A stretch of DNA of 22,980 nt from a virus, in IMG/VR virus record IMGVR_UViG_3300024264_001665, positions 1 to 22,980 of that record. One strand, written 5' to 3'. How positions within the stretch are numbered: position 1 is the first letter of the stretch; each line of letters begins with the position of its first letter. The position numbers were made by a program, and so were the translations under genes. The notes beneath the pieces are model-generated. The model did not search any database. It had not been told where the DNA came from and saw only the letters and a list, made by a program, of their open reading frames with translations. Shown piece after piece: positions 1 to 22,980 of the stretch.

Positions 1-302
1 CAGGAATGGTTGGAGCACCTGCTTGTGGTGACGTCATGAAATTACAGTTGAAACTTGACAGCGCCGAACGCATCACAGATGTAAAGTTTAAAACTTACGG
101 GTGTGGGAGTGCAATAGCGAGTTCTACAATGTTTGTAGAAATGCTAAAAGGAAGAACAATAGAAGAAGCAAAATTAATTAAAGACAAAGATATTGCTGAC
201 GCTTTACAATTACCTCCAATAAAACTACATTGTTCAGTTTTGGCAGAGGGAAGCATAAGAAAGGCAATAGAAGATTGGGAGCAGAAATGTACGAAGATTT
301 AA
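1..302 (+). CDS. iscU: IscU-like iron-sulfur cluster scaffold protein (5' end outside the window)
   Basis: IscU is the scaffold on which [2Fe-2S] clusters are built from IscS-derived sulfur before transfer by the HscA/HscB chaperones. The frame is open to the window edge (first full codon 3-5, Gly), and the visible part begins at the GMVGAPACGD segment near residue 30 of cellular IscU, so the ATG at 6 is internal and about 30 residues are missing. All three cluster cysteines are present, in APACGDV (with the Asp), YGCGSAIAS and LHCSVLAE (with the His before Cys). LPPIK matches the HscA-binding LPPVK motif conservatively. The C-terminus is complete. The gene overlaps the next one by 16 bases. 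Identity as IscU is nearly certain; that it is a phage auxiliary gene is inferred from the phage genes that follow. It appears functional rather than degraded. Confidence 0.93.
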   Translation, partial: GMVGAPACGDVMKLQLKLDSAERITDVKFKTYGCGSAIASSTMFVEMLKGRTIEEAKLIKDKDIADALQLPPIKLHCSVLAEGSIRKAIEDWEQKCTKI

Positions 303-1683: not shown

Positions 1684-1723
1684 AAAAATAGTTCTTGACA
1701 AGTCCTTAAAAATTGTGTATAAT
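1684..1723 (+). promoter_or_regulatory. Promoter P2, sigma70-like
   Basis: TTGACA at 1695-1700 and TATAAT at 1718-1723, perfect consensus and 17 bases apart. The block AAAAATAGTTCTTGACA at 1684-1700 is identical to that of P1. The start point should be near 1730. It drives the small gene at 1748 and the first ligase half. Confidence 0.9.
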
Positions 1724-1747: not shown

Positions 1748-2017
1748 ATGACATATGACCAACACGGTCGCAAACGTAAGAGCAAATTCACTAAGGCTGT
1801 GAGAACCAAGCAGCCTCAGTGGAAAACCTTTGCTCCAGAGCCTACAATTCGTAGGAATATCCCCGAATACCCTTCCGCTCCTTTGAGCGAGTATACACCT
1901 GCGCGTGATAGTTCTTACAAACAAAAAGTAAGTGAGAAGTATACAGTGTCGATTGCATACAATAAAGGGGCATACCAAGTAATACCAAAAGAAGAAGTAA
2001 AACATATAGGAAAGTAA
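1748..2017 (+). CDS. small basic phage protein of unknown function
   Basis: An 89-residue protein, Lys/Arg-rich at the N-terminus (DQHGRKRKSKF) and Pro-rich in the middle (PEYPSAPLSEYTP), hence probably partly disordered, with a short ordered end (YTVSIAYNKGAYQVIPKEEV). I recall similar proteins, beginning TYDxHGRK, in marine cyanophages with no known function. ATG 1748 follows AAAAGGA (1738-1744) after a short gap of three bases. Two in-frame alternatives are less likely: ATG 1730 coincides with the predicted transcript start, and GTG 1715 lies inside the promoter. Its stop overlaps the start of the ligase gene (TAATG), indicating translational coupling. Confidence 0.7.
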   Translation: MTYDQHGRKRKSKFTKAVRTKQPQWKTFAPEPTIRRNIPEYPSAPLSEYTPARDSSYKQKVSEKYTVSIAYNKGAYQVIPKEEVKHIGK

Positions 2018-2952
2018 TGAACAAGTTAGAGGCATTTTTAAAACAAGCAAAAGCAGATTACTATAGTGGTAATCCAATTATACCTGATGAAGTCTACGAT
2101 AGATTAGAAGAACAGGTAGGCGTTACTGCTGTTGGCTCAGATGAAGGTGTAAGAATACCTCATATGTTTCCTATGTATTCTTTACAGAAAATTTATAAGG
2201 GAGAGAAAGACCCTTCTACTTTTTTACCTGGAGTAGTAACTGTTACACCTAAATTAGACGGAGCTGCAGTTAGTATTCAATATATAGAGGGACAACTAAC
2301 AATGGCACTTACAAGAGGAGATGGTAAGAAAGGTCTAGAGATTACAGATAAGATTAGACATCTAGTACCAAATACAATATCTTTCAAAGGACCTCATCAA
2401 GTAACAGGAGAGATAGTAGCTCCAAAAGAAATACCCAATGCTCGTAACTATGCAGCGGGTGCGCTTAACTTAAAAGATATTGAGGAAGTTAAGCGAAGAG
2501 ACTTAACTTTTATAGCTTATGGCGTACAACCTGCTATCTGCCCTGACTGGGTAGAAGATATGAGAATGTTACAGCATGTAGGATTCAATACAGCAATTGA
2601 TTCTAACTGGGAACAATTTCCGCAGGATGGAGATGTCTGGAGAATAGTTAGCCACAAAGAGTTTGATGAGTTAGGATATACTTCTCATCATCCTCGTGGT
2701 GCTTTCGCTCTCAAAGAAAAGCAAGAAGGCATAGTCACAAAACTACTTGATGTTAAATGGCAAGTAGGAAAGTCAGGGAACGTTTCCCCAGTAGCAATAC
2801 TTGAACCCTGTATAATAGGGGAAGCAACAGTTTCAAGGGCAACTTTACACAATATCGCAATTATAGAGTCGTTAGACTTACAGATAGGGTGTATGGTTGA
2901 AGTAATAAGAGCAGGGGAAATCATTCCCCAAATAGTAGCGAGAGTAGACTAA
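2017..2952 (+). CDS. ligA: NAD-dependent DNA ligase, adenylation and OB-fold half (split ligase, N-terminal subunit)
   Basis: NAD-dependent ligases seal nicks, for example between Okazaki fragments. This 311-residue protein holds only the N-terminal half of a LigA. Domain Ia has DYYSGNPIIPDEVYD (residues 14-28) and HMFPMYSLQK; the nucleotidyl-transfer domain has KLDG (nucleophile Lys79), TRGDG (99-103), TGEIV (Glu132), ARNYAAGALN (142-151), a DGDVWRI motif IV (204-210) and the AFALK motif V (Lys233). The OB fold follows (QVGKSGNVSPVA, SRATLHN, IRAGEIIPQI) and the protein stops exactly where the zinc finger would begin. The missing domains are encoded at 4487-5251. All catalytic residues are present, so the protein should self-adenylate but need its partner for efficient joining. 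Cellular LigA is about 670 residues. It is coupled (TAATG) to genes on both sides. Confidence 0.93.
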   Translation: MNKLEAFLKQAKADYYSGNPIIPDEVYDRLEEQVGVTAVGSDEGVRIPHMFPMYSLQKIYKGEKDPSTFLPGVVTVTPKLDGAAVSIQYIEGQLTMALTRGDGKKGLEITDKIRHLVPNTISFKGPHQVTGEIVAPKEIPNARNYAAGALNLKDIEEVKRRDLTFIAYGVQPAICPDWVEDMRMLQHVGFNTAIDSNWEQFPQDGDVWRIVSHKEFDELGYTSHHPRGAFALKEKQEGIVTKLLDVKWQVGKSGNVSPVAILEPCIIGEATVSRATLHNIAIIESLDLQIGCMVEVIRAGEIIPQIVARVD

Positions 2953-3173
2953 TGAAAGAATATGAAGTATATTCGGAGTACAGAGAAGGAACACGAATAG
3001 GTAAAGTAGTTCGACATATTGAAAATAAATATTGGGGAGTACATCTCTCTGACACATCAACTGAAAAGAGTGGATTTCTTATGTGGCATCCAACAAAAAG
3101 CGAGTACTGGTGTGAAGATATCGCAGAAAACTTTTGTTTGAAAATGATTGAACAAGATGGAACGCCAGCGTAA
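2952..3173 (+). CDS. small hypothetical protein, cassette between ligase halves
   Basis: A 73-residue protein that I do not recognise. It is aromatic-rich (many Tyr and Trp) with alternating strand-like segments (GTRIGKVVRHIENKYWGVHL), suggesting a small beta-barrel or SH3-like fold. There are two cysteines (in WCED and FCLK) and no membrane segment. The ATG overlaps the ligase stop (TAATG at 2950-2954), so it is translated by coupling to the ligase. It is the first of the genes lying between the two ligase halves. Confidence 0.68.
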   Translation: MKEYEVYSEYREGTRIGKVVRHIENKYWGVHLSDTSTEKSGFLMWHPTKSEYWCEDIAENFCLKMIEQDGTPA

Positions 3174-3214
3174 ATTATTAATATCTGTCTGGACTACAGG
3201 CAAGAAAACGGTAT

Positions 3215-3400
3215 ATGTATATGAAACTAAGAAAGAAACTAATAATTTCTCAGGACGGAATTCCAGTACACGAGGACGGCAGTAAGCTAACTTGGGCTGA
3301 GTATAAAGACTGGGAGATATCAGAAGGCGAAACTAATACTAATAAAATAAGTTTACGTTTTGGAATTTACGAAACAGACTATAAGTATTTTAACGAATGA
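3215..3400 (+). CDS. small hypothetical protein, cassette between ligase halves
   Basis: A 61-residue protein of unknown function, beginning MYMKLRKKLIIS and ending with a Tyr-rich segment. The start could also be ATG 3221; the next gene begins with the similar MKIRKKL, which favours 3221, but neither ATG has a clear ribosome site. Its stop overlaps the next start (ATGA). A competing 42-codon frame (3157-3285) covers its first part, so confidence is moderate. Confidence 0.55.
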   Translation: MYMKLRKKLIISQDGIPVHEDGSKLTWAEYKDWEISEGETNTNKISLRFGIYETDYKYFNE

Positions 3401-3582
3401 AAATAAGAAAGAAATTAATGAAAAGAGCAAATAAACTTCCAGACAATCCTTGTGGAGACTGTAAGTTTTATGAAGCCGTACATAATATCACCCCAAAACT
3501 TAGTGAGGGTTGGTGTAGAGTAACTATGCCTTCAGCAATGGTACTTTCAGAGGAGACTTGCGAAAAATGGAACCCAAAATGA
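3397..3582 (+). CDS. small four-cysteine protein, possible metal-binding
   Basis: A 61-residue protein with a basic N-terminus (MKIRKKLMKR) and four cysteines: Cys19 and Cys22 (NPCGDCKFYE), Cys40 (GWCRV) and Cys55 (ETCEKW). The CxxC-x17-C-x14-C layout could bind zinc or an iron-sulfur cluster, though no family can be named. ATG 3397 shares ATGA with the previous stop; ATG 3418 is a later in-frame alternative that keeps all four cysteines. The stop in turn overlaps the next start. It lies in the cassette between the ligase halves. Confidence 0.68.
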   Translation: MKIRKKLMKRANKLPDNPCGDCKFYEAVHNITPKLSEGWCRVTMPSAMVLSEETCEKWNPK

Positions 3583-3869
3583 AGTATACAAAAGAAGAAA
3601 TACAAAACAGTAAAAGAATATATAAAAGTGCAACTCCTAAACAGGATTTGTCTTGGTATATAAAATGGACAGCAAGTGTCTTTTTAATTGGCGCTTTTGC
3701 TGTTCGTTCTACACAATCTTTTCCTTTTATCGACCTTTGCTTATCCTTAATAGGTGTAGCAGGTTGGCTTTGGGTAGGTATGCTGTGGAAAGATAGAGCA
3801 TTAATTATATTAAACGGAATTGCAGTCTTTATTCTATTAACTGGACTTATAAATCATTTTTCAACATGA
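3579..3869 (+). CDS. small membrane protein with three predicted transmembrane segments
   Basis: A 96-residue protein with a soluble charged N-terminus of about 23 residues (MKYTKEEIQNSKRIYKSATP), then three hydrophobic stretches at about residues 26-44 (from WYIKWTASVF), 48-70 (from FPFIDLCLSL) and 73-94 (from RALIILNGIA). It is probably an inner-membrane protein of the infected cell; the role is unknown. Small proteins of this look are found in marine phages and bacteria, by my recollection. I take ATG 3579 because ATGA overlaps the preceding stop as elsewhere in this cassette; ATG 3567, with AGGAG 11 bases upstream, would add four residues. Confidence 0.7.
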   Translation: MKYTKEEIQNSKRIYKSATPKQDLSWYIKWTASVFLIGAFAVRSTQSFPFIDLCLSLIGVAGWLWVGMLWKDRALIILNGIAVFILLTGLINHFST

Positions 3870-4069
3870 ACTTAAAAGAAAAAATACAAGCAAGATTAGA
3901 CCAACTGGAAATGCTAATGTATGAAAACTATCATCTAAAGAATCCTGAGGAAGTTTACAATCAAACTTTACATATTAGTAAATTTTGGTCTATACTTTCA
4001 GAAGGAGACAGAGATTTTGTTCAGGCTGCCCAAGATTCAATCACAGAAGGCTGGGAGTGGATTAAGTGA
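3866..4069 (+). CDS. small hypothetical protein
   Basis: A 67-residue, mostly helical, acidic protein (MNLKEKIQARLDQLEMLMYENYHL, then WSILSEGDRDFVQAAQDSI and a Trp-rich end). It has no cysteine and no recognised motif. ATG 3866 shares ATGA with the membrane-protein stop, and its own stop shares GTGA with the GIY-YIG-like gene, so it is part of a chain of coupled genes. Confidence 0.68.
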   Translation: MNLKEKIQARLDQLEMLMYENYHLKNPEEVYNQTLHISKFWSILSEGDRDFVQAAQDSITEGWEWIK

Positions 4070-4434
4070 GTGGAGGAGTCTACAACAAGACTTATTTTGA
4101 GAATAGACCTGAAGAACAGTTAGAAGAAGGTGTTCTTTATGGAGTCATTCTTGTCAACCAAAAGACATTTGAGAGAGAATGTATCAAGGTTGGTATAGCA
4201 AAGGGAAAAGATTGGAGGCACGTTATTAAAAGAAGTCGTGGTTTTAAAGGATATGATTTGCGTATTCAACGAACTTACCACGATACAATCTATAACTGTT
4301 GGAAGAAAGAGCAGGAGCTGCACGAGGAGTTTAAAGACGACCGTCATTATCCAGCTGAAAAATTTGGTGGGCATACAGAGTGTTTCAAAATTGATTCCAA
4401 AATTTTATCCCACTTCCCGAAAAATAATTCTTGA
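4066..4434 (+). CDS. GIY-YIG-like nuclease domain protein
   Basis: A 122-residue protein with the shape of a stand-alone GIY-YIG nuclease: LYGVIL (residues 24-29) in place of GIY, KVGIA (41-45) in place of YIG, basic residues in WRHVIKRSRG (Arg51, Arg56), a helix carrying Glu (KKEQELHEEF, 81-89) and GGHTECF (Glu105) near the end. In this superfamily the two Tyr-containing strands, an Arg and a Glu form a metal-dependent nuclease site; relatives include homing endonucleases and the T5orf172 group. Exact motif letters differ, so activity is uncertain. The start is GTG 4066 with GGGAG at 4053-4057, eight bases upstream, and it overlaps the preceding stop. The stop codon lies inside the -35 of promoter P3. 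It is the last gene before the second ligase half. Confidence 0.65.
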   Translation: MSGGVYNKTYFENRPEEQLEEGVLYGVILVNQKTFERECIKVGIAKGKDWRHVIKRSRGFKGYDLRIQRTYHDTIYNCWKKEQELHEEFKDDRHYPAEKFGGHTECFKIDSKILSHFPKNNS

Positions 4435-4459
4435 CAAACGCTCTCTCGTCTGATATAAT
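4420..4459 (+). promoter_or_regulatory. Promoter P3, sigma70-like with extended -10
   Basis: TTGACA at 4431-4436 and TATAAT at 4454-4459, 17 bases apart, with TG at 4451-4452 forming an extended -10. The upstream block AAAAATAATTCTTGACA differs from P1 and P2 at one base. The -35 overlaps the end of the GIY-YIG-like gene. The start point should be near 4466, giving the second ligase gene a leader of about 20 bases. Confidence 0.9.
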
Positions 4460-4486
4460 ATACTTATATTTTGGGAGAAAGACAAT

Positions 4487-5251
4487 ATGACAGAGATAAT
4501 ACCACCGACAAGTTGTCCAGCATGCGCAAGTGTGTTAGAGCTTGTTAATGACCAATTATTCTGTCGTAATAAACTTTGTCCCGCTCAGTCAGCAAAGCGT
4601 GTTGAACACTTCGCAAAGACTTTAAAAATCAAAGGACTCGGCCCTTCGACTATCGAAAAGCTGGGTCTTTCAGATTACCATGATATCTATTCTCTCACCC
4701 AAGAGGAAATATCATCAACATTGGATTCAGAAAAACTGGGAACTAAACTCTTTCAAGAAATAAACAAATCGAAGAGTAATGACCTAACAGTTTTACTTCC
4801 AGCTTTTTCGATACCGCTGATAGGCTCAAGTGCCACTCAAAAGTTAGCAAAACACATCTCATCAATACATGAGATAACCCCAGAGACATGTGCAGAGGCA
4901 GGTCTGGGTCCTAAAGCGGCGTCGAACCTTCTTGATTGGTTAGTAAACACTTTCCACTTCGAAAAATACTACGAGCTACCCTTTTCTTTTGCTTGTGATA
5001 ACAAGGCTAAAGTCAGTCACGAGAACACTAAGGGAACAGTTTGTATTTCAGGAAAGCTAATAAGCTATCCTACCAAAGCGGCCGCCAAACAAGTATTAGA
5101 AGAAAACGGCTACGCAGTAAAGGATAACTTAACGAAAGATGTAACAATCTTAGTTAATGAAAGTGGTATAGCAAGTGCAAAAACTAAGAAAGCAGAGACA
5201 ATGGGTATAACAATTATTATTAACATAAAAGACATTTTAGAGGAAAATTAA
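4487..5251 (+). CDS. NAD-dependent DNA ligase, zinc-finger/HhH/BRCT half (split ligase, C-terminal subunit)
   Basis: This 254-residue protein supplies the domains missing from the product of 2017-2952. Residues 7-34 form the LigA zinc finger (PTSCPAC with Cys10 and Cys13; FCRNKLCPAQ with Cys26 and Cys31). Residues about 35-160 hold the helix-hairpin-helix region (KIKGLGPSTIEKLGL, IPLIGSSATQKLA, GLGPKAASNLL), and residues about 180-254 the BRCT domain (GTVCISGKL, then AAAKQVLEENGYAV). In an intact LigA the first residues here would directly follow the OB fold. The HhH part grips nicked DNA, so the two proteins probably work as a heterodimer. It has its own promoter, P3, and GGGAG at 4473-4477, nine bases before the ATG. 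CpG frequency is about twice that of the first half by hand count. T5 is also annotated with a two-subunit ligase. Confidence 0.92.
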   Translation: MTEIIPPTSCPACASVLELVNDQLFCRNKLCPAQSAKRVEHFAKTLKIKGLGPSTIEKLGLSDYHDIYSLTQEEISSTLDSEKLGTKLFQEINKSKSNDLTVLLPAFSIPLIGSSATQKLAKHISSIHEITPETCAEAGLGPKAASNLLDWLVNTFHFEKYYELPFSFACDNKAKVSHENTKGTVCISGKLISYPTKAAAKQVLEENGYAVKDNLTKDVTILVNESGIASAKTKKAETMGITIIINIKDILEEN

Positions 5252-5253
5252 AA

Positions 5254-5970
5254 ATGGCATTACCAAAATGGACAGACGAAAGAACTTCAGAGTTAACTTC
5301 TTTCGTGGGCAATGAGAGCCCTATATCTCAAGCTATGGTTGCAGAAGCAGCTGAGCAGTTAGAAACATCTACAAGATCAGTTTCTAGCAAACTAAGAAAG
5401 ATGGGTTATGATGTAGAACTAGCTTCTGCTTCAGCAACTAAGTCTTTTTCAGAAGACCAAGAAGCTACTTTATCAGCTTTCGTAACTGATAACAGTGGTT
5501 CTTACACATATGCAGAAATTGCATCACACTTTGAAGGCGGAGCTTTTTCAGCTAAGTCAATTCAAGGAAAAATCCTTTCTATGGAATTAACAGAGCATGT
5601 TAAACCTGCTCCTAAAGTAGAAACAGTTAGAACTTATACTCCTGAAGAAGAAGTAACATTTGTTGAAATGGTAAACGGCGGAAGCTTCGTAGAAGAAATC
5701 GCTGATGCATTAGGCAAATCAGTTAATTCAATCAGAGGTAAAGCTCTATCTTTATTAAGAAGTGGGGAAATCAATGCGATTCCTAAGCAGAAAGAAACTA
5801 AAGGTTCAAGCAAAGCTGACGTTTTAGCTGACATCGATATCTCTGGCATGACTGTCGAAGAAATCGCTGATTCAATCGGCAAAACAGTAAGAGGAGTAAA
5901 AACAATGTTGACTAGAAGAGGTCTACAGTGTTCCGATTACAACGGTGCTGCTAAAAAAGAAATAGGTTAA
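5254..5970 (+). CDS. Tandem-repeat SANT/HTH-like DNA-binding protein
   Basis: A 238-residue protein built of four related helical units: residues 5-54 (starts KWTDER), 64-112 (SFSEDQ), 127-176 (TYTPEE) and 190-229 (shortened, ends TMLTRRGLQC). Each has an acidic Trp/aromatic-led first helix, an IA-containing second helix (AEIASHF, EEIADALGK, EEIADSIGK) and a basic third helix (SVSSKLRKMGY, SIQGKILSM, SIRGKALSLL, GVKTMLTRRG). This is the pattern of Myb/SANT or related helix-turn-helix repeats, so DNA binding is likely. A single unit of the same kind occurs at 563-1015. It lies between ligase and DnaB-type helicase and is followed at once by a strong terminator, which suggests high expression. 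AGAGGA at 5239-5244 precedes the ATG by nine bases. A role like T5 D5 (abundant early DNA-binding regulator) is inferred from position only. Confidence 0.78.
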   Translation: MALPKWTDERTSELTSFVGNESPISQAMVAEAAEQLETSTRSVSSKLRKMGYDVELASASATKSFSEDQEATLSAFVTDNSGSYTYAEIASHFEGGAFSAKSIQGKILSMELTEHVKPAPKVETVRTYTPEEEVTFVEMVNGGSFVEEIADALGKSVNSIRGKALSLLRSGEINAIPKQKETKGSSKADVLADIDISGMTVEEIADSIGKTVRGVKTMLTRRGLQCSDYNGAAKKEIG

Positions 5971-11134: not shown

Positions 11135-11226
11135 AAATAGTAATAGAAATAGACACAGAGCAAGAACACGATAGAGAAACGATACAAGAAATTATAGAGT
11201 TGCTCAGAGGTCTAATAGATGATTAG
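11131..11226 (+). CDS. 31-residue acidic peptide gene
   Basis: A very short gene with strong signals: GGAG at 11121-11124 stands six bases before ATG 11131, the ATG shares ATGA with the upstream stop, and the frame ends eight bases into the next gene. The product is a strand (MKIVIEID) followed by an amphipathic acidic helix ending LLRGLIDD. The function is unknown. It may be a true microprotein or a coupling leader that delivers ribosomes to the oxygenase start at 11219. Confidence 0.55.
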   Translation: MKIVIEIDTEQEHDRETIQEIIELLRGLIDD

Positions 11227-11797
11227 GCAGGCAAGAAAAGTCCCTTTTTGGTACTCTAAAAACAGATTACAACCCGAAGTTTGTGATGAAATTATTAAGT
11301 TAGGAAAAGAACTTGACATAAAAGAGGCAGGGATATTTGGAGCTGATACAGCAAGCAAAGTAAAAGACAATAAAATGAGAGTATCAAAAGCAGGCTGGTT
11401 TCCGAAAGGGCATGCTGTAGAAATGATGATACATAATTATGTAGCTCTTGCAAACTTAGAAGCAGGTTGGAACTTTGTAATTACAGGAAAAGAAACAGTA
11501 CAGTTTGGAGAGTATAAAACTAAAGCTTTTTATAATTGGCATAGTGATACTACATGGAATCCTGCAGTACCTTTTCGTAAGTTATCAGTAACAGTTAACT
11601 TATCAGACCCTAAAGATTATGCGGGCGGGAACTTTGAGATAAGAAGTCAAACAGGACAAGAGTTTAAATTAAATCAATTTAGACTGAGAGGAACTGTAAT
11701 AGTGTTTCCGTCTTTTTTAAAGCATAGAGTCACAGAAGTAACAAGAGGCAAAAGATATTCATTAGTACAATGGCTAAACGGCCCGGACTTTGTATAA
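11219..11797 (+). CDS. 2-oxoglutarate/Fe(II)-dependent dioxygenase
   Basis: A 192-residue jelly-roll oxygenase of the prolyl-hydroxylase-like (PKHD) type, which couples 2-oxoglutarate decarboxylation to substrate hydroxylation. The iron ligands are His108 and Asp110 (YNWHSDTTW) and His169 (FLKHRVTEV); Arg179 (RGKRYSLVQW), ten residues after the distal His, should bind 2-oxoglutarate. YAGGNFEI (134-141) and RGTVIVFPSF (157-166) are typical flanking strands. Such genes are frequent in marine phages; targets proposed elsewhere include proteins and nucleic acids, but the substrate here is unknown. It lies within the replication operon between polymerase and helicase, which weakly suggests a DNA-related or proteome-remodelling role. 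Confidence 0.88.
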   Translation: MIRQARKVPFWYSKNRLQPEVCDEIIKLGKELDIKEAGIFGADTASKVKDNKMRVSKAGWFPKGHAVEMMIHNYVALANLEAGWNFVITGKETVQFGEYKTKAFYNWHSDTTWNPAVPFRKLSVTVNLSDPKDYAGGNFEIRSQTGQEFKLNQFRLRGTVIVFPSFLKHRVTEVTRGKRYSLVQWLNGPDFV

Positions 11798-14165: not shown

Positions 14166-14687
14166 ATGATTACAGTAGGACAAAAGTTCCCTGCCTTTAC
14201 TTTGCAGGGTGTCGATAAAGACAATAACTTTGTACAAGTATCAGTTACAGAACAGTATGAGCCTTTGAAAAAGGAGTATACAGTAGTATACTTTTATCCA
14301 AAGGACTTCACTTTCATATGCCCAACAGAAATAGCGGGAATGGATATGTTAGTAGAAGAAGCTAATGTAATAGGTATTAGCGGAGACAATGAATTTTGTA
14401 AGTTAGCTTGGAAACAAGACAATGAAATAATTGGCAACATACAACATTCGTTAGCCGCAGACTGTGGTCTAGGTTTGTCTCATAAGCTTGGTATCGTAAA
14501 TGAAGAAGCTGGTGTTTGCTATAGAGCTACCTATATTATAGATAGAAATGATATAGTACAACACGTTAGTGTAAATGCACTTGACACAGGTAGAAACGCC
14601 AAAGAAGTACTTAGAACCTTACAAGCAATTAAAGCTGGTGGTCTCACTGGCTGTGCTTGGGAAGAAGGAGATGAGTTTCTAGGATGA
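14166..14687 (+). CDS. 2-Cys peroxiredoxin (AhpC-like)
   Basis: A 173-residue thiol peroxidase of the AhpC/TSA family, which reduces hydrogen peroxide and organic peroxides. The active-site motif PKDFTFICPTE carries Pro45, Thr49 and peroxidatic Cys52; Arg120 (YRATYIID) completes the site. Cys163 (LTGCAWEEGD) is in the place of the resolving cysteine, so it should be a typical 2-Cys enzyme working as dimers or decamers. Length is close to the family norm, slightly shorter than E. coli AhpC (187). No AhpF-like reductase is encoded here, so it would rely on host thioredoxin or AhpF. AAGGAG at 14156-14161 precedes the ATG. It is coupled to sbcD (ATGA). It is an auxiliary gene placed inside a DNA-replication operon, perhaps protecting the diiron reductase or the host during infection. 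Confidence 0.92.
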   Translation: MITVGQKFPAFTLQGVDKDNNFVQVSVTEQYEPLKKEYTVVYFYPKDFTFICPTEIAGMDMLVEEANVIGISGDNEFCKLAWKQDNEIIGNIQHSLAADCGLGLSHKLGIVNEEAGVCYRATYIIDRNDIVQHVSVNALDTGRNAKEVLRTLQAIKAGGLTGCAWEEGDEFLG

Positions 14688-21735: not shown

Positions 21736-22980
21736 TTATCCTACTAAAAACCCGTTAAAGCTACTTTCTCCGTGTATTTCATATGTTCCAGTATTCGCTA
21801 ATACGGCAACCCCTACTTGAGTACCTGCTGATAAATATACACACCACGAACTACTCATAGAAAAATAATTAGAGGAAAGTGTTCCAAGTCCGTGTATTAC
21901 ATGCCCTTGGGACATACCACTTTGCAAAGTATTTGCACTTGTTCCAGTGTAAAAAGCCATTCTCATATATGCATTACTACTAGTTGAATCTGCATTATCA
22001 ATTCTTACTTGTGCATTAAACTGATAAACTCCATCTACAGGTGTTGTATATCTTCCTGTACTTGTACTATAATTACCTGAGCCTGCTTGCTGTCCTGTTG
22101 GAAATACAACTGCAGTTGTACCGCTTTGGCCACTTCCATTTCCACCTCTTACCCAAAAGAATCCATTTGAATCATATAATTTAGGTTGTTGTACTAAACC
22201 ATTTGAAGTAATTCTTATCCCAGGTTTTTGCCCTACATATCCTCCAGGATGTTGAGTATAAAGTTCTAATTCTCCTGCTCTCCAGTTACTATCATTTCCA
22301 TTACCTGTTGGTCTACCCATAATCCAAGCATAAGTTGTATTATAACTTCCAGAAGGTGACGTTGCTCCCCAACCTATAAATGGACCATAAGCACTTGTAG
22401 TATTATTTTCATTATGCATAATAATACCAGGCCAGTTTCTATTATCTGTTGCTGAATGGTCTTTATGAATTACTAAAGCAGGATTTTTGCCGTCTGCACC
22501 AGTTTCCCACCCTGTTCCATTACTTGTTAAATATCTTCCACCTTTTAAACTATATGTAGTATCTGAATCTAAATCAGTATTAGATATACTGACACTTCCA
22601 GTATTAGTTGTAGAGTCGCCTGAAGACCCTGCTCCTACTTTAAATCGTACAGAACCATCTGTTCCATCAATACGCATTCTTTCATTATTAGTACCAGTGC
22701 TATTTGTATGGAACATTATAGGCATATTAGCGTCTTCTGTTCTAAGTCTTAAACCACCATCTGCATAAATTTCTCCGGGATTACCTGCTGAAGTACCTCT
22801 AAATAAAATAGTTTTTGTTGAATTACCACTTCCATCAAGTCGAAGGGTTACACCATCTCCAAATATATTTAAGGCCGAACCTGTAGGATTAGTACCAATA
22901 AGTGAATTATCTCCTATTACTACATTACCAGAATCAAGAATAGATATTCTTTTTGTTCCTTCATCAGTTTGAAATGCTAA
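21736..22980 (-). CDS. Tail-fibre-like structural protein with C1q-like C-terminal domain (5' end outside the window)
   Basis: The frame is open from the right edge to the TAA at 21736-21738, about 414 residues, so the start lies beyond the window; the Met at 22725 is internal. The sequence is Gly/Ser/Thr/Asn-rich with repeated strand-like phrases (GDGVTLRLDGSGN, GEIYADGGLRLR, NNERMRIDGTDGSV), typical of trimeric fibre shafts in marine phages. The last 140 residues (about 22158 to 21739) fit a C1q/TNF-like jelly roll: an aromatic strand, GRYTTPVDGVYQFNAQVRI, a middle strand set, LSAGTQVGVAV and the closing SSFNGFLVG. Such trimeric tips often contact host receptors. It is on the opposite strand from the replication genes, consistent with late structural genes. 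Fibre or other virion appendage is inferred. Confidence 0.8.
   Translation of the reverse strand, partial: LAFQTDEGTKRISILDSGNVVIGDNSLIGTNPTGSALNIFGDGVTLRLDGSGNSTKTILFRGTSAGNPGEIYADGGLRLRTEDANMPIMFHTNSTGTNNERMRIDGTDGSVRFKVGAGSSGDSTTNTGSVSISNTDLDSDTTYSLKGGRYLTSNGTGWETGADGKNPALVIHKDHSATDNRNWPGIIMHNENNTTSAYGPFIGWGATSPSGSYNTTYAWIMGRPTGNGNDSNWRAGELELYTQHPGGYVGQKPGIRITSNGLVQQPKLYDSNGFFWVRGGNGSGQSGTTAVVFPTGQQAGSGNYSTSTGRYTTPVDGVYQFNAQVRIDNADSTSSNAYMRMAFYTGTSANTLQSGMSQGHVIHGLGTLSSNYFSMSSSWCVYLSAGTQVGVAVLANTGTYEIHGESSFNGFLVG

What the first reader, a model, noticed from the sequence alone, without database searches (positions are those of the whole stretch)
2017..5251. NAD-dependent DNA ligase split exactly between OB fold and zinc finger, with a six-gene cassette in the gap
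The first protein ends just after the OB-fold IRAGEIIPQI segment; the second begins at the zinc finger (CPAC) that would follow directly in an intact LigA. About 1.5 kb with six small coupled genes lies between, and the second half has its own promoter. All catalytic and DNA-binding parts are conserved, so a two-subunit enzyme is likely. T5 also has two ligase genes; the exact border and the intervening cassette may differ.
Basis: partly seen in the sequence, partly recalled or inferred. Interest (0 to 1): 0.72.

Follow-up and report, generated by a model that had tools for sequence, protein, structure and literature searches.

The report
T5-type two-subunit phage DNA ligase
A marine relative of phage T5 makes its DNA-joining enzyme from two separate genes, just as T5 and its whole family do; such a pair is known and a solved structure of a relative bound to nicked DNA is public, so only the small genes lying between the two halves are new.

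Summary
In detail: ligA (2017-2952) carries domain Ia, adenylation and OB; ligB (4487-5251) carries the Cys4 zinc finger, HhH and BRCT; six small ORFs and a perfect sigma-70 promoter lie between. The two-subunit interpretation is also right, but not new. Phage T5 has the same two genes (T5.116/T5.117), PHROGs has a family for each half, about 1,000 sequenced phages match, and PDB 9HU3/9I5I are the 'PR1 phage heterodimeric DNA ligase' on nicked DNA, homologous to both window proteins. The border does not differ from T5: in 68 A-halves and 69 B-halves the cut is at the same place (E. coli LigA about 392/400). What varies is the gap, 59 bp to 5.9 kb, with a promoter before ligB. Long gaps nearly always carry a T5orf172/GIY-YIG-like nuclease gene just before that promoter (59 of 65 distinct loci; 0 of 33 short gaps), so the cassette is variable cargo in an already split gene pair. 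Family-wide, the adenine-contacting residues E113 and K290 of E. coli LigA are Thr/Ser and Arg. New member of a known kind; low surprise.

The parts
1695..1723 (+). sigma-70 consensus promoter (TTGACA-17-TATAAT) ahead of ORF 1715 and ligA
   Evidence: 12 of 12 matches
2017..2952 (+). ligA: NAD-dependent DNA ligase subunit A (domain Ia, nucleotidyltransferase, OB fold)
   Evidence: PHROG 3359 2.8e-104; phmmer to 9hu3_A 2.5e-65; AlphaFold model matches 9i5i_E, E 4.7e-35, TM 0.77
2952..3173 (+). cassette ORF 1 (73 aa), unknown; start overlaps the ligA stop
   Evidence: recurs in relatives at 53-84% identity
3215..3400 (+). cassette ORF 2 (61 aa), doubtful; not found in relatives
3397..3582 (+). 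cassette ORF 3 (61 aa), Cys-rich small protein
   Evidence: recurs in relatives
3558..3869 (+). cassette ORF 4 (up to 103 aa), DUF6552 protein; present in few relatives
   Evidence: Pfam PF20189 1.7e-20; L016, L017
3866..4069 (+). cassette ORF 5 (67 aa), unknown
   Evidence: recurs in relatives
4066..4434 (+). cassette ORF 6 (g6, 122 aa), T5orf172 / GIY-YIG-like putative endonuclease; its stop codon lies inside the -35 box of the ligB promoter
   Evidence: Pfam PF10544 9.7e-5, over cut-off; PHROG 681 endonuclease 4.8e-12; directly before ligB in 161 of 174 loci that hold it, 9 of the rest end at the contig edge
4431..4459 (+). sigma-70 consensus promoter of ligB and the genes behind it
   Evidence: 12 of 12; 57 of 76 distinct relatives 12/12, 69 of 76 at least 11/12
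4487..5251 (+). ligB: NAD-dependent DNA ligase subunit B (Cys4 zinc finger, HhH, BRCT)
   Evidence: PHROG 3498 2.6e-68; phmmer to 9hu3_B 8.8e-32; four zinc cysteines in 69 of 69; AlphaFold model matches 9hu3_B, E 1.5e-15
5254..5970 (+). D5-like transcription/replication regulator, directly behind ligB as in T5
   Evidence: PHROG 323 1.2e-46; T5 order ligA-ligB-D5-D6-pri-pol

Best explanation
The two genes encode the A and B subunits of the T5-family heterodimeric NAD-dependent DNA ligase. Subunit A binds NAD+ (domain Ia), is adenylated on K79 (KLDG motif, E. coli K115), and with its OB fold forms the catalytic core. Subunit B brings the zinc finger, HhH and BRCT domains that close the DNA clamp; contact between the chains replaces the covalent OB-to-zinc-finger linker of ordinary LigA. 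The enzyme seals nicks during phage replication. The genes stand in two transcription units: ligA with its upstream gene and the cargo genes, and ligB with D5 and the replisome. The six small genes are cargo gathered at the junction and are not needed for the split. Shown here: domain content, border, promoter consensus, purifying selection, homology to the solved heterodimer. Inferred: that these two window proteins assemble and ligate.
For: Same gene pair, same order and same next gene D5 in T5 and in Vibrio, Aeromonas and Providencia T5-like phages. PDB 9hu3/9i5i 'PR1 phage heterodimeric DNA ligase' with nicked DNA match both chains by sequence and fold; chain A is 100% identical to Providencia phage PR1. 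Invariant K115, D117, G118, E173, K314 and domain Ia Y22, D36 equivalents in 68 of 68 A; C408/411/426/432 in 69 of 69 B. No second ligase in six complete relatives. Purifying selection on both halves.
Against: No biochemistry exists for these two proteins. Each half was modelled alone, and the relative placing of domains in the B model is uncertain (pTM 0.61; rmsd 10.8 to 9hu3_B). Lys290, which contacts adenine N1 in E. coli LigA, is replaced by Arg, though this is also so in T5 and PR1.
Confidence: 0.95

Rival explanations
1. The split was made by the cassette: a mobile nuclease gene (g6) with passengers broke an intact ligA, and the halves survived.
For: g6 is a T5orf172/GIY-YIG-like nuclease and sits at the junction in 59 of 65 distinct long-gap loci.
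Against: 33 distinct loci with gaps of 59-206 bp, T5 itself among them, are split at the same point without g6 or any cassette. The split is therefore older than or independent of the cassette.
Confidence: 0.03
2. Subunit A alone is a working minimal ligase, and B is a decaying or separately used DNA-binding protein.
For: A holds the catalytic motifs.
Against: B keeps all zinc cysteines and has dN/dS 0.11-0.22; all ten marine records over 20 kb that were searched hold both halves; the PR1 enzyme was solved as a heterodimer. Zinc finger and HhH complete the DNA clamp in ordinary LigA (PMC5052709).
Confidence: 0.04
3. Artefact: an assembly join, or a frameshifted single gene read as two.
For: The window comes from a virus record of metagenome origin.
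Against: The same arrangement in about 100 distinct loci and in many complete isolates; 1.5 kb of DNA with conserved coding genes between the halves.
Confidence: 0.005

Closest known systems
Escherichia phage T5 LigA/LigB (T5.116/T5.117, AY543070)
   Same: Same two genes, order and border, promoters in the gap, D5 directly behind
   Different: 44% and 40% identity; T5 gap about 200 bp with no genes, here 1.5 kb with six
Providencia phage vB_PreS_PR1 heterodimeric ligase (PDB 9HU3, 9I5I)
   Same: Homologous A and B chains, solved together on nicked DNA; annotated promoter between the genes
   Different: Closely spaced genes; enterobacterial host
Vibrio phages Gary, PG07 and D254 (T5-like)
   Same: Split ligase with two or three small genes between the halves
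   Different: Other small genes; no g6 match
Single-chain bacterial LigA (E. coli, PDB 2OWO)
   Same: Same domains in the same order
   Different: One chain; about 36 residues more before the active-site lysine; Lys290 and Glu113 instead of Arg and Thr/Ser
Single-chain phage NAD ligases (Citromicrobium RXM, Acinetobacter Ab1-TPeters, Vibrio sm033, cyanophage MaMV-DH01 and others)
   Same: Phage-encoded NAD ligase family
   Different: Unsplit, and not flanked by the D5-helicase-primase-polymerase module

Membership tests
T5-family two-subunit NAD-dependent DNA ligase | Subunit A with domain Ia, adenylation domain and OB fold, ending before the zinc finger | tested here: met
   PHROG 3359 over the full length; ends at E. 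coli LigA about 392
T5-family two-subunit NAD-dependent DNA ligase | Subunit B with Cys4 zinc finger, HhH and BRCT | tested here: met
   PHROG 3498; C408/411/426/432 equivalents present; fold match 9hu3_B
T5-family two-subunit NAD-dependent DNA ligase | Border at the same position as in T5 | tested here: met
   68 A and 69 B halves aligned
T5-family two-subunit NAD-dependent DNA ligase | Gene order ligA-ligB-D5-helicase-primase-polymerase | tested here: met
T5-family two-subunit NAD-dependent DNA ligase | Heterodimer that seals nicks using NAD+ | not testable with these tools
   Solved complex exists for PR1 only
NAD-dependent DNA ligase (LigA) | NMN-binding residues of domain Ia and the KxDG lysine | tested here: met
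   Y22, D32, Y35, D36, K115, D117, G118 equivalents present in the window protein; H23 is Tyr
NAD-dependent DNA ligase (LigA) | Motif IV lysine (E. coli K290) | tested here: not met
   Arg in the window and in all 68 split enzymes, T5 and PR1 included; a trait of the T5 family, which is why filing is under that family
T5orf172 / GIY-YIG nuclease (g6) | Match over the curated cut-off | tested here: met
   23.3 bits, cut-off 20; PHROG 681 endonuclease
Homing endonuclease (g6) | Cuts an empty allele and is copied into it | not testable with these tools
   Only occupied and empty arrangements seen

The most novel reading that the evidence does not exclude
The junction between ligA and ligB is a hotspot where marine T5-like phages gain genes, held by a highly conserved small GIY-YIG-like nuclease (g6) that either homes into the junction or acts on the overlapping ligB promoter, so that g6 governs the spread of the cassette or the balance of the ligase halves.
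Probability: 0.25. Interest if true: 0.4.

Novelty: new member of a known kind. Interest (0 to 1): 0.2.

Why it matters
It extends a known two-part phage ligase to a large group of uncultivated marine phages, and shows that the cut point and the ligB promoter are fixed while the DNA between the halves is free to vary. A fixed cut and promoter over such divergence suggest that separate expression of the halves is kept by selection, which is testable. As a discovery claim the split ligase itself is not new.

Tried and rejected
Near-identical DNA in phage isolates: none. Intein or trans-splicing reading: no extra domain at the A end or the B start; the missing piece is a short loop. Cassette as cause of the split: rejected by cassette-free split relatives. 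T5 nick consensus RGCGC: 11 in the window against 18.6 expected, no enrichment, so no support for T5-like nick sites here. ligB loci that seemed to lack ligA: in the one on a long contig (L237), ligA lies 5.9 kb upstream; the others are short contigs, so absence cannot be told from a contig end. Solved-structure search with g6: nothing. Papers: no held text names 9HU3/9I5I; several literature searches gave nothing on the split itself, but a T5-like genome note states that A and B subunits seal the nicks (PMC4319617).

Full report
What is in the window. The record is a 22,980-bp virus fragment that carries a T5-type replication module: D5-like regulator, DnaB-type helicase, primase, family A polymerase, D10-like helicase, SbcD/SbcC-like proteins, flap exonuclease and ribonucleotide reductase (SbcCD read from the ORF position and translation). 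Phage T5 has ligA, ligB, D5, D6, primase, polymerase, D10, D12, D13, D14 and D15 in the same order.

The observation. ligA (2017-2952) and ligB (4487-5251) are intact. Against E. coli LigA taken from the genome record, A ends at about residue 392 and B begins at about 400, eight residues before the first zinc cysteine; a loop of some seven residues is absent. Six ORFs lie between. Two perfect sigma-70 promoters stand before the ligA unit and before ligB. Coding pressure is clear for both halves and the tested cassette genes (dN/dS 0.02 to 0.22). The second cassette ORF has no counterpart in relatives and may not be a gene.

Known status. PHROGs has one family for each half. The phage collection holds 1,139 records matching A and 966 matching B. 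T5 is annotated with subunits A and B and with two promoters between them. The PDB holds 9HU3 and 9I5I, titled PR1 phage heterodimeric DNA ligase in complex with 21-mer nicked DNA; their chains match the window proteins by sequence and by fold. The chain A sequence is identical to Providencia phage vB_PreS_PR1, whose two genes are also separated by an annotated terminator and promoter. A T5-like genome note says that the A and B subunits seal the nicks of the genome (PMC4319617). The finding's central claim is therefore already established for the family.

Border and promoter are constant. In 68 A halves and 69 B halves, from T5, PR1 and Vibrio phages to marine contigs, the cut is at the same place. 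Of 76 distinct regions upstream of ligB, 57 hold a 12/12 promoter and 69 at least 11/12; random positions of the same loci reach 11 or more in 14 of 380. This fits separate transcription of the halves as a kept feature; that selection keeps it is inference.

The gap varies. Among 98 distinct ligA-ligB pairs, 33 have gaps of 59-206 bp with no cassette and 65 have 533-2,698 bp; 59 of those 65 hold g6. One further record has a gap of 5.9 kb filled with enzymes of unrelated function. g6 lies directly before ligB in 161 of 174 loci that hold it, is more conserved in protein sequence than either ligase half in most comparisons, and has almost no relatives in isolates. Because the split exists without any cassette, the cassette did not create it. 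Vibrio isolates Gary, PG07 and D254 already show small genes in the gap.

Active-site detail. All 68 split A subunits have Arg where E. coli has Lys290 and Thr or Ser where E. coli has Glu113. In E. coli these residues contact adenine N1 and N6 (PMC5052709). The stretch up to the active-site lysine is about 36 residues shorter than in E. coli. These are family traits, shared by T5 and PR1, and do not argue against activity.

Alternatives. No other NAD-ligase adenylation domain is present in the window or in six complete T5-like genomes, nor an ATP-dependent ligase domain. Single-chain LigA occurs in phages outside the T5 group, so split and fused forms follow lineage in this sample.

Verdict. 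Observation confirmed, interpretation supported, novelty low: a new and divergent member of the T5 two-subunit ligase family with a variable cargo cassette. The open, modest question is what g6 does at the junction.

Noticed in passing
window 6-302: IscU/NifU-type iron-sulphur scaffold gene, cut by the window edge (Pfam NifU_N 6e-35); an auxiliary gene ahead of a T5-like replication module.
   Followed up: no
window 14166-14687: Peroxiredoxin (AhpC/TSA) gene inside the replication module.
   Followed up: no
window 11219-11797: 2OG-Fe(II) oxygenase gene between polymerase and D10-like helicase.
   Followed up: no
L016-L018, ligA: Apparent ligA allele exchange: residues 1 to about 240 (domain Ia and adenylation) are 57-90% identical to the window, while the OB part and most flanking genes are 90-100% identical; the catalytic part seems to be swapped by recombination.
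   Followed up: partly
L237 154-4816; L239: The ligA-ligB gap of some relatives holds what look like a radical SAM protein, a nucleotidyltransferase and a NodU/TobZ-like carbamoyltransferase (read from translations), perhaps a modification cluster.
   Followed up: no
window 4424-4440: The g6 stop codon TGA lies inside the TTGACA -35 box of the ligB promoter, an arrangement kept in relatives with g6.
   Followed up: no
window 21736-22725 (- strand): C1q-domain protein with weak tail-protein match, on the opposite strand, marks the start of another gene block.
   Followed up: no
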